A DNA stretch of 64,000 nt from Tupaia tana. Lineage: Eukaryota > Chordata > Mammalia > Scandentia > Tupaiidae. Both the position numbers and the translations under genes were made by a program. This document shows positions 15,505 to 55,486 of this stretch, in pieces (position 1 is the stretch's first letter; every line of letters begins with the position of its first letter). Under the pieces are notes generated by a model that was not told the DNA's origin, made no database searches, and saw only the letters and a program-made list of their open reading frames with translations. The stretch spans positions 81,292,059 through 81,356,058 of the forward strand of contig JAKSZU010000016.1 of assembly GCA_026018925.1 (NCBI GenBank), in the 5' to 3' direction.

Positions 15505-15602
15505 GGAGGAAGGTGAGTTTTAATCCACTAGATCCAGGACTCAAACTGTAGTCAGCCATGTGGGAGTCTGATGACATAACCACTACGCCATCTGCTGGCC
15601 CC
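15505..15602 (-). mobile_element. SINE head fragment
   Basis: Reverse head only (CCAGGACTCAAACTG, GTCAGCCATGTGGGAGTC, CGCCATCTGCTGGCCCC). It abuts the 5' side of the mariner relic. Confidence 0.7.
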
Positions 15603-15711
15603 ACTTGCTGTTTATTTTATATATATTTTTAGACTATGGAAATTATGTTAGAACAAAAGCAAATTCAAGTAGTTTTCTTGAGTTCAAAATGTGTTGTGGA
15701 AAAAAAAAAAT

Positions 15712-15973
15712 GGGAACCAGCAGTTAGCGTAATGGCTATGTCGCTGGACTCCCACATAGTCGACCGCGGTTCGCGTCCCGGACCCGGTGGCTTAAAATTC
15801 ACGTCGGGCGCATGTGCGTGCGTGCCCAAGATCCCGAGAGGAGAATGGAGGAGAAGGGATAGCAGCGTGACCATCCCCCCTGGGGGGTGATTTCTCGCTT
15901 TCTGTCTCTATGTCTCTCTCTGTCTGTCTGGCGAGCGCACACGCCCTATAGCAAAAATCTCTCAAAAAAAAAA
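15712..15973 (+). mobile_element. SINE type A, young, inside mariner
   Basis: Intact body with CpG-rich B box GGTTCGCGTCC. TSD AAAATGTGTTGTG at 15686-15698 and 15974-15986. An extra A-rich stretch (15701-15710) lies between the 5' TSD and the head. Confidence 0.95.
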
Positions 15974-16700
15974 AAAATGTGTTGTGAAGACAACTCACTA
16001 CACTGACAGCACAGTGGCCTGGGGATGGCTAACAGAGGTACTGAGCAGTGAGGATGCAAGAAGCTTTGCAAAGGAGACAAGAGCCTTGGAGGTGATCGTG
16101 GTGGCAGGCCACCAGAAGTTGAAAATGACCAACTAAGAGCAATAATGGAGGCTGATCCTCTTACAACTCCGGGAGAAGTTGCCGAAGAACTCAGCATCAC
16201 CATTCTATGGTCACCCGCATCGGAAGCACATTGGAAAGATGAAAAAGCTCCATTGGTGGGTGCCTCAGGAGCTAACCAAAAAAATTTTTTAATTGTCATT
16301 TTGAAGTGTTGCCTTCTTATATTCTACACAAAAATGATGAATCGTTTCTTGACTGGACGGTGACGTGACAAAAAGTGGATTTTATACAGTAACTGGTAAT
16401 GATCAGCTTGTTGTTGGACCAAAAAGAAGCCCCAAAGTACTTCCCAAAGCCAAACTTGCACCCCCAAAAAAGGTTATGGTCACTGTTGGGTGGGGTCTGA
16501 TGCACTCCAGCTTTCTGAATCCCAGCGAAACCACTGCATATGAGAAGGGTACTGAGCCAATCTATGAGGTGCACCAAAATCCGCAACGCCTGCAGCCAGC
16601 AGTGGTCGACAGAGAGGGCCTACCTCTCCACAATGCCCAGCCTCACGTCAACACCAGCACTTCGGAAGCTGAATGAACTGGGCTGCAAAGTTTGCCTCGC

Positions 16701-16968
16701 CCGCCATATTCACCTGCCCTCACCAGCCACGTTCACCGGCCCCACACCCGCCACATTCACCGGCCCCACACCTGCCACGTTCACCTGCCCCCGCCCGCCA
16801 CGTTCACCTGCCCCCACCCGCCATGTTCACCTGCCCCCGCCCGCCACGTTCACCTGCCCCCACCCGCCACGTTCACCGCCACGTTCACCTGCCCCCGCCC
16901 GCCACGTTCACCTGCCCCCGCCCGCCACGTTCACCTGCCCCCACCCGCCATGTTCACCTGCCCTCACC
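16701..16968 (+). repeat. 23-bp minisatellite born from the mariner PPYSPDL codons
   Basis: Twelve TTCAC anchors occur at 16709, 16732, 16756, 16780, 16803, 16826, 16849, 16872, 16884, 16907, 16930 and 16953. Spacing is 23 or 24 bp except one 12-bp partial unit. The unit is a CG-rich CCCGCCACGTTCACCTGCC form of the codons that encode PPYSP in the transposase. The first and last units both keep the CACCTGCCCTCACCA edge expected of the single ancestral copy. Confidence 0.95.
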
Positions 16969-17234
16969 AACCAACTACCACTTTCAAGCATCTCGACCGC
17001 CGTCTGCAGAGAAAGTGCTTCCACCCCAGCAGGATGCAGAAGATGCTTTCCAAGGGTTCGCAGGATCCCAAAGCACAAATTTTTATGCTACAAGAATAAA
17101 CAAACTTATTTCTTGTTGCGTTGATCATAATGGTTCCTATTTTGATTAACAAAGATATGCTTGAGCCTAGTTATAATGATTTAAAAGTCACGGTCTGAAA
17201 CTACCATTGCTTTTGCAAGGACCTGCTAGATACA

Positions 17235-17960
17235 ACGTGACACAGCACTCAGCTCCCAAGTATTTATCCTAAAGAAATCAGAGCGTGTGTCTATACAGAA
17301 GCCTGAGTGCGGATGTGTACAGCAGTTCTGTTTCCAGTTAGCAGTAACTACAGACACACCCAAACATCCAGGGGTGACTAGACAAGCAGACTGCGCAGCC
17401 ACACCATGGAAGGCTTCTCTCAGCCAAGAGGGACGAGGTAAGTCATGTGACCGCCCGTATGCACCTCCGGGGCATCATGCTGAGGGAAGTGGCTAGTCTG
17501 AAGAGGTGGCATCCTAGAAGGCTTTACTCATATGGCATTCTTGAAAAGACAAAGCTACAGGAACAGTAATGGGGCCAGCAGGTGGCATGGTGGTTAAGGG
17601 CGCTGGACTCCCACATGACCGACCATGGTTTGAGCCCCAGACCTGGTGGCTTGCTTTCTCACTTTCTCTCTCTCTTTCTCTGTTTCTCTCTGAGCAAATT
17701 AAAATAGATAGATAGATAGATAAAGTTAAAAAAAAAAAAAGAAAGTAAATGGGAGAGTTGGGGTGGTGGCCACAGAGGGCTCTCGCAGGGAGCTCCACGG
17801 GCCCTGGTGCTGTCTGTGCCCCGGCTGTGGAAGTGGATGCACAAATCTGTGCGTGTGTTGACATTCACAGAACTACCCCGAAAATGTCCTCTCGCTGCAT
17901 GTTAATGTTAAATGAAATTACGAATGCACGTGGTGGCGATTTTACCAGCTGGACTAAATT
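17235..17960 (+). mobile_element. L1 ORF2-end and 3' UTR relic, SINE-split
   Basis: AAGTATTTATCCTAAAGAAA, CACACCCAAACATCCAGGGG and CATCATGCTGAGGGAAGTGG align with the ORF2 end of L1ME-type elements. The 3' part resumes after the SINE at 17571-17740. Confidence 0.65.
17571..17740 (+). mobile_element. SINE type B
   Basis: GGGGCCAGCAGGTGGCATGG head, CT-rich middle, AAATTAAAATAGATAGA tail with a (GATA)n expansion and an A run. Short-body architecture without the long type A body. Confidence 0.85.
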
Positions 17961-28343: not shown

Positions 28344-28368
28344 AAAAGAAATGACAGCACGTGGGTGG

Positions 28369-28491
28369 GCCTGGGTGCCATGTCGGTAGGCCCAAGGGCC
28401 ATGTCAGTTGGCCTGGGCGCCATGCCAGTGAGCCCGGGCACTATGTCGGTGGCCTGGGCACGTGTTCCTGGGCCTGGACACCATGTCCAGG
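28369..28491 (+). repeat. 21-bp minisatellite, about six units
   Basis: Units start GCC(T/C)(G/A)GG at 28369, 28390, 28411, 28432, 28452 and 28472, with an internal CCATGTCGGT motif. The first units are exactly 21 bp, so one frame reads a seven-residue repeat (GLGAMSV, GPRAMSV, GLGAMPV). No flanking coding evidence. Confidence 0.85.
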
Positions 28492-30232: not shown

Positions 30233-30392
30233 GGTAAGGGGCCCCGGGTCACCAAATACCCTGTCACAAAGCACCATGGTAAGGGGCCCGCAGGTCACAA
30301 AGCGCCATGGTAAGAGCCCCGTGGGTCACCAAATACCGTGTCACAAAGCACCACGGTAAGGGGCCCACCGGTCACAAAGCACCATGTTAAGG
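30233..30392 (+). repeat. higher-order tandem repeat, alternating 45 and 31 bp
   Basis: GGTAAG-type unit starts at 30233, 30278, 30309, 30355 and 30385 give spacings of 45, 31, 46 and about 31 bp. The long unit carries GGTCACCAAATACC(C/G)TGTCACAAAG and the short unit GGTCACAAAGC. The pair of about 76 bp is repeated twice. Confidence 0.9.
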
Positions 30393-54990: not shown

Positions 54991-55092
54991 CAGACCCGAG
55001 ATGTGAACCCAGAGCCTTCCCACATGGTGTCCGGCAGCACCCAGACCCGAGATGTGAACCCAGAGCCTTCCCACATGGTCTCCAGCAGCACC
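54991..55092 (+). repeat. 51-bp tandem duplication
   Basis: CAGACCCGAGATGTGAACCC begins units at 54991 and 55042 with about three mismatches between them. Confidence 0.9.
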
Positions 55093-55486
55093 CAGCAGCC
55101 CATCCTGCCTGCACCATCATGACCGGGCCTGTCTCCACTTTTTGGTGATTGTTATCAATGCTTTTATGAACTGTGTACAAGTTTTCACGTGGATATGCTT
55201 TCATTTCTCGTGGGAATATACCTAGGAGTGGGACTGCTGGGTCCTGTGTAATTCCAGGTCTACCCTTGGAGGAGCAGCAGGCTGCTTCTTGACGGCAGTG
55301 TGACCGAGTTTCCTCTCCCCATCCAGATATTCTCTTCACATCCTTTCTTTTCCTTTCAGAGCTGTTGACAGTGATCTGAGCAACTCTAGACTTGATGCTC
55401 ATTCCCCTACACCATCACTGTCCCACATCAATGATGCCACGTGCTTGTACGCTTTGTTGTAGCAACACTTTAAAAAGTAAACAAAA

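What the first reader, a model, noticed from the sequence alone, without database searches (positions are those of the whole stretch)
16701..16968. A minisatellite that grew out of a transposase catalytic motif
Eleven full units of 23-24 bp plus one 12-bp partial unit sit exactly where a Hsmar1-like mariner encodes PPYSPDL, the motif holding the third catalytic aspartate. The unit is a variant of those codons, and both array edges still match the single ancestral copy (CACCTGCCCTCACCA). The source of the repeat, its birthplace and its unit can therefore all be read from one locus.
Basis: partly seen in the sequence, partly recalled or inferred. Interest (0 to 1): 0.85.

Follow-up and report, generated by a model that had tools for sequence, protein, structure and literature searches.

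The report
Minisatellite born inside a dead mariner
In one dead copy of a jumping gene, a 23-letter piece was copied in tandem about twelve times, and since sibling copies keep the single original piece the birth of this repeat can be traced, though such births are already known to be common.

Summary
The array is real: 16701-16968 holds 11 full 23-24 bp units plus a 12-bp partial one. It lies in a decayed Hsmar1/SETMAR-like mariner, in register with the codons for PPYSPDL. All 39 other copies fetched (40 of 619 first-look candidates were scored, the window among them) carry one unit: site length 36-50 bp, window 286 bp. A two-unit pattern with up to 3 mismatches found 8 places in 2.95 Gb, all in this array. 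The array most likely grew in place.

One claim fails. PPYSPDL does not hold the third catalytic residue; that is the D of PTDY, five codons downstream and just outside the array.

Added here: both edges share two changes that probably preceded the first duplication. A short imperfect direct repeat lies 23 bp apart in the inferred precursor, but its statistics are weak. This copy has an AT-to-GC excess, strongest near the array, as GC-biased gene conversion would give; another copy without an array comes close.

TE-derived minisatellites are a known class (at least 7,276 in human; PMC3389668). New member of a known kind.

The parts
15974..17217 (+). Decayed Hsmar1/SETMAR-like mariner copy (larger part of the transposase region to near the 3' end); host of the array. 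Ends approximate
   Evidence: blastn of the window against 39 other copies: left-hand hits begin from 15984; of the 8 farthest-reaching hits 6 end at 17217, one at 17224, one at 17236; coverage 30 at 17200 and 1 at 17225. SETMAR match of the family peptide
15702..15973 (+). tRNA-like SINE that appears to be inserted in the 5' part of the mariner, flanked by a probable target-site duplication (15686-15705 / 15974-15993, 85% alike)
   Evidence: repeats D3, D4 and I1; right boundary and SINE identity read by eye
16690..16701 (+). Left single-copy flank (GTTTGCCTCGCC), corresponding to GTTTTGCCTCAT of the family
   Evidence: against the rows
16701..16968 (+). Minisatellite array: 11 full units of 23-24 bp plus a 12-bp partial unit; 72% G+C, C-rich on the + strand
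16701..16725 (+). Left edge unit; the one unit that keeps the family's CCGCCATATTCACCTG
16865..16876 (+). 12-bp partial unit (start spacing 12 instead of 23): an 11-bp deletion or a 12-bp duplication inside the array
16946..16969 (+). Right edge unit, ending in CACCTGCCCTCACCA shared with the left edge
16973..16975 (+). AAC at the position of the third catalytic codon (family consensus GAC), just outside the array

Best explanation
A minisatellite born in place in one dead mariner copy. Steps: (1) the copy acquired changes in the PPYSPDL region (GACCTCTCACC to GCCCTCACC) [inferred, since both edges share them]; (2) a 23-bp stretch was tandemly duplicated, perhaps by replication slippage or unequal exchange between short imperfect direct repeats (GCCTCGCCCGCCA / CCCTCACCAACCA, 9 of 13 alike) that lie 23 bp apart in the inferred precursor [inferred, weak statistics]; (3) further duplication and exchange or conversion made and partly homogenised the array [several identical units shown, mechanism inferred]; (4) AT-to-GC changes accumulated in and beside it, as GC-biased gene conversion at a recombining repeat would produce [excess shown, cause inferred]. 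I propose no cellular function.
For: Register and co-linearity with the mariner. One unit in 39 of 39 other fetched copies: site length 36-50 bp with 29 at 45, against 286 bp here; 0 of 39 site rows hold two TTCACCTG words. Two-unit pattern with up to 3 mismatches: 8 places in 2.95 Gb, all in this array; reversed control 0 and 0. Four of nine 23-bp units are identical to the consensus unit, while the left edge unit differs at 3 sites and alone keeps CATATT. Offset 23 scores best of offsets 15-39 for self-similarity of the inferred precursor. Private AT-to-GC against GC-to-AT changes outside the array: 35:13 here, 754:792 in the 39 others together (Fisher P 0.001); within 150 bp upstream and 92 bp downstream 11:0, farther off 24:13 (P 0.02). 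All 6 differences between the consensus motif and the commonest unit are AT to GC.
Against: The flanking repeat is not significant alone: in 4000 shuffles its score is reached at offset 23 in 2.9% but at some offset from 15 to 39 in 44%; with only the CT deletion put into the family consensus 7% and 80%; with the unaltered consensus 19% and 99%, and 23 ties with six other offsets. L006, a copy without an array, has nearly the same AT-to-GC bias (38:15), and the test was devised after looking at the data. The right edge unit is no more derived than one interior unit. Only 40 of 619 first-look candidates were scored.
Confidence: 0.9

Rival explanations
1. The array is an inherited feature of a mariner subfamily: the element already carried it when it inserted.
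For: Three of 39 other copies share the GCC codon seen at the array edges (L002, L006, L028), so a subfamily with that substitution is possible.
Against: Those three have one unit each; 0 of 39 site rows contain CCCTCACC or two TTCACCTG words; no two-unit array elsewhere.
Confidence: 0.03
2. A pre-existing minisatellite was copied into the mariner and its resemblance to the PPYSPDL codons is coincidence.
For: None found.
Against: No donor array found with up to 3 mismatches; the left edge unit equals the family motif over CCGCCATATTCACCTG and the flanks run on in register.
Confidence: 0.01
3. The array did grow in place, but the first duplication did not use the short flanking repeats: end joining of a staggered break or another homology-free error made it.
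For: The flanking similarity is weak by shuffling. Ahmed and Liang say that postulated mechanisms explain only 6% of TE-derived tandem repeats in human (PMC3389668, abstract passage).
Against: The best-scoring self-offset of the inferred precursor is exactly the period, 23.
Confidence: 0.45
4. The array has a function (regulatory element or coding repeat).
For: None found. The G-rich strand has GGGNGGGGG runs: 0 quadruplex matches with loops of 1-7, 15 overlapping ones with loops of 1-15.
Against: The site is 241 bp longer than the mode, not a multiple of 3; in four stretches folded, z-scores ran from -0.93 to 2.63, so no clear hairpin; the copy is decayed and probably SINE-interrupted.
Confidence: 0.03

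Closest known systems
TE-derived minisatellites of the human genome (Ahmed and Liang 2012, PMC3389668; abstract and other passages seen)
   Same: Tandem array whose unit is a piece of the transposable element it sits in; at least 7,276, 23% of minisatellites/satellites; expansion by local duplication of units
   Different: The terms 'mariner' and 'DNA transposon' do not occur in the held main text; here the single-unit precursor is visible in 39 sibling copies
Mouse Ms6-hm and Hm-2 within MaLR LTRs, and human minisatellites within Alu (listed in PMC9659126 and PMC6947457; table and passages seen)
   Same: Minisatellite grown inside a transposable element
   Different: Retroelements there; the transposase-coding part of a DNA transposon here
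Tc1/mariner links to tandem repeats listed in PMC9659126 (table and passages): Xenopus tropicalis miDNA4 within a Tc1-mariner MITE, Messor Mboumar inside satellite DNA, Bari1 clusters
   Same: Tandem repeats associated with Tc1/mariner elements
   Different: A repeat inside a MITE, a mariner inside a satellite, or tandem whole elements; not a short coding piece multiplied in one dead copy
Haber and Louis 1998 model of minisatellite origin (as told in PMC6947457, passages; the original not seen)
   Same: Unit lies between short direct repeats; slippage or unequal exchange makes the first duplication
   Different: Here the repeat is imperfect and statistically weak
Human Hsmar1 / SETMAR (Metnase) mariner
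   Same: Family site peptide matches SETMAR over residues 1-67 of the 68-residue query, E 3.9e-36
   Different: Family consensus has Asp where SETMAR has Asn; no Alu head in the window with up to 3 mismatches, so the host may not be a primate

Membership tests
Minisatellite | Head-to-tail array of units of about 10-100 bp | tested here: met
   23-24 bp units, 12 starts
Minisatellite | Variable length between individuals | not testable with these tools
   One assembly only
TE-derived tandem repeat | Unit similar to, and placed inside, a transposable element | tested here: met
TE-derived tandem repeat | Other copies of the element lack the array | tested here: met
   39 of 39 fetched copies; 40 of 619 first-look candidates were scored, the window included
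Haber-Louis type origin | Short direct repeats (5-10 bp) flanking the founding unit | tested here: inconclusive
   Exact 5-bp CCTCA at offset 23 only in the consensus with the CT deletion put in; 9 of 13 in the inferred precursor; shuffles reach the score in 2.9% at offset 23 and 44% at any of 25 offsets
Hsmar1-like mariner | Transposase similar to SETMAR and Mos1, 34 residues between second and third catalytic residues | tested here: met
   for the family site consensus, not the window copy itself; the label DD34D is recalled
Hsmar1-like mariner | Terminal inverted repeats and TA target site | not tested
   Only the approximate 3' limit of homology was seen

The most novel reading that the evidence does not exclude
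The array marks a recombination-active spot where GC-biased gene conversion rewrote both the unit and the adjoining transposon sequence. With single-unit siblings as outgroup, this locus would be a natural record of how conversion and duplication together make a minisatellite.
Probability: 0.3. Interest if true: 0.45.

Novelty: new member of a known kind. Interest (0 to 1): 0.3.

Why it matters
How the first duplication of a minisatellite starts is hard to study (PMC3389668, passages). A multicopy transposon gives many independent views of the sequence before duplication, so at this locus the precursor, the founding changes, the junction and the later GC drift can be looked at apart. It is a clean worked example rather than a new kind of object.

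Tried and rejected
A search for other duplicated copies (TATTCACCTG N6-30 TATTCACCTG, exact only, so diverged ones would be missed) gave one place, against two for the reversed control; it lies in a TG microsatellite, L049, by eye no mariner. Hairpin-driven expansion: four stretches folded, z-scores from -0.93 to 2.63, no clear hairpin. Primate host: no Alu head in the window with up to 3 mismatches; the species was not identified. Two paper searches for a mariner-derived minisatellite (651 papers hold at least 4 of 5 terms, 25 listed; 40 hold at least 3 of 5, 15 listed) showed no title that I recognised as one inside a mariner coding region; this covers only the open-licence library and what was listed. 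Of the papers named, only passages were seen. The searches were read as listings and gave nothing that I used.

A count of the whole mariner family (pattern CCAACYRACTACCACTTCTTCAAGCATCTC) did not complete.

Correction: an earlier count gave 10 of 13 for the flanking repeat; the answer shows 9 of 13.

Full report
Observation. The array is present as described. Twelve unit starts lie between 16702 and 16946 with spacings 23, 24, 24, 23, 23, 23, 23, 12, 23, 23, 23, and Tandem Repeats Finder reports a 23-bp period there. The 18-mer is expected 0.13 times by chance in the window with up to 3 mismatches; 12 were found. The edge word CACCTGCCCTCACCA occurs exactly twice, at 16711 and 16955.

Host element. 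The window's own genome is held: 2,948,224,869 bases in 1,198 contigs. A DNA search with 16581-17120 gave 56 matching stretches; 40 of 619 first-look candidates were scored, one of them the window itself, and I fetched the 39 others. Of these, 39 match to the right of the array (75-80% identity) and 37 to the left (67-77%); L014 and L040 have no left match, and some left matches stop short of the array. Inside the array, from 16750 to 16925, coverage by these copies is 0. The peptide read from the majority of the 39 copies matches human SETMAR over 67 residues (E 3.9e-36) and Mos1 (E about 5e-12), so this is an Hsmar1-like mariner. Homology in the window runs to about 17217. A SINE flanked by a probable 20-bp target duplication, 85% alike, appears to interrupt the copy at 15702-15973 (SINE read by eye).

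Birthplace and uniqueness. In the 39 other copies the interval from GTTTTGCC to TACCAC is 36-50 bases, 45 in 29 of them; in the window it is 286. None of the 39 site rows holds two TTCACCTG words. The two-unit array pattern, with up to 3 mismatches, is found at 8 places in the genome, all in this array, and 0 times for the reversed control. A search for exact two-unit versions of the ancestral motif gave one place, in a TG microsatellite, against two for the control.

Catalytic motif. In the family peptide the HDN aspartate is residue 9, the SPD aspartate residue 39 (29 between) and the PTDY aspartate residue 44 (34 between). Residue 44 aligns with Asn in SETMAR and with Asp in Mos1. SETMAR's catalytic motif is described as DDN610 (PMC4036204, passages); that this Asn is the one in PTNY is my inference from alignment and spacing, and the label DD34D is recalled. 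The catalytic codon therefore lies just downstream of the array. In the window it reads AAC; among the 39 others it is GAC in 17 and AAC in 16. The SPD codon, GAC in 24 of 39 and GCC in 3, is GCC at both array edges, so the array multiplies a version without that aspartate.

Order of events. The consensus reads GACCTCTCACC and both array edges read GCCCTCACC. None of the 39 other site rows contains CCCTCACC, though 3 (L002, L006, L028) contain GCCCTC. The simplest reading is that these changes came before the first duplication; spread by conversion inside the array is not excluded. The left edge unit alone keeps CATATT and differs from the consensus unit at 3 sites; four of the nine 23-bp units are identical to it; the right edge unit differs at 2 sites, the same two as one interior unit. 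So the left edge looks old and part of the interior homogenised, while the right edge unit is not more derived than the interior. The 12-bp unit can be an 11-bp deletion or a 12-bp duplication.

Founding duplication. In the inferred precursor, GCCTCGCCCGCCA and CCCTCACCAACCA (9 of 13 identical) lie 23 bp apart, and 23 scores best of offsets 15-39. With the family consensus changed only by the CT deletion there is an exact 5-bp repeat CCTCA at 23. This would fit the Haber and Louis model as told in PMC6947457 (passages). The statistics are weak: 4000 shuffles reach the score at offset 23 in 2.9% of cases for the precursor, 7% for the deletion-only string and 19% for the unaltered consensus, and at some offset in 44%, 80% and 99%. 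The match of offset to period is suggestive, no more.

GC drift. All six differences between the consensus motif and the commonest unit are AT to GC. Outside the array, private changes in this copy (base in at most 10% of the other copies, majority base in at least 60%) are 35 AT-to-GC against 13 GC-to-AT, while the 39 others total 754 to 792 (Fisher P 0.001); close to the array it is 11:0, farther 24:13 (P 0.02). This copy ranks first of 40, but L006, without an array, is close behind (38:15). An earlier count that did not ask for private changes and left out CpG contexts also put this copy first (53:27) and L006 second (36:19). GC-biased gene conversion is a reasonable cause; regional composition or subfamily differences are alternatives (flanking G+C 0.529 here; L007 at 0.538 shows no excess). 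The test was devised after looking at the data.

Known context. At least 7,276 human minisatellites or satellites, 23% of those counted, derive from transposable elements (PMC3389668, abstract and passages). Reviews list cases in Alu, B1 and MaLR LTRs, and Tc1/mariner cases of other shapes (PMC9659126 and PMC6947457, passages and tables). The kind is known; this is a well-resolved example in a mariner transposase region. Length variation, age and orthologues could not be tested.

Noticed in passing
15702-15973, about 17569-17735, and (reverse) 15513-15613: Three copies of a tRNA-like SINE lie in and beside this mariner (limits partly by eye); the one at 15702-15973 appears to have inserted into it.
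   Followed up: partly
28368-28459; 30246-30391; 54991-55095: Other short tandem arrays (21-, 77- and 51-bp periods) in the same window; their origins were not traced.
   Followed up: no
G000, mariner copies L002-L040: The genome gave 619 first-look candidates for this Hsmar1-like mariner, yet no Alu head was seen in the window; if the host is not a primate, the spread of Hsmar1-like elements deserves a look.
   Followed up: no
L006: A mariner copy without an array shows almost the same AT-to-GC excess (38:15) as the window copy.
   Followed up: no
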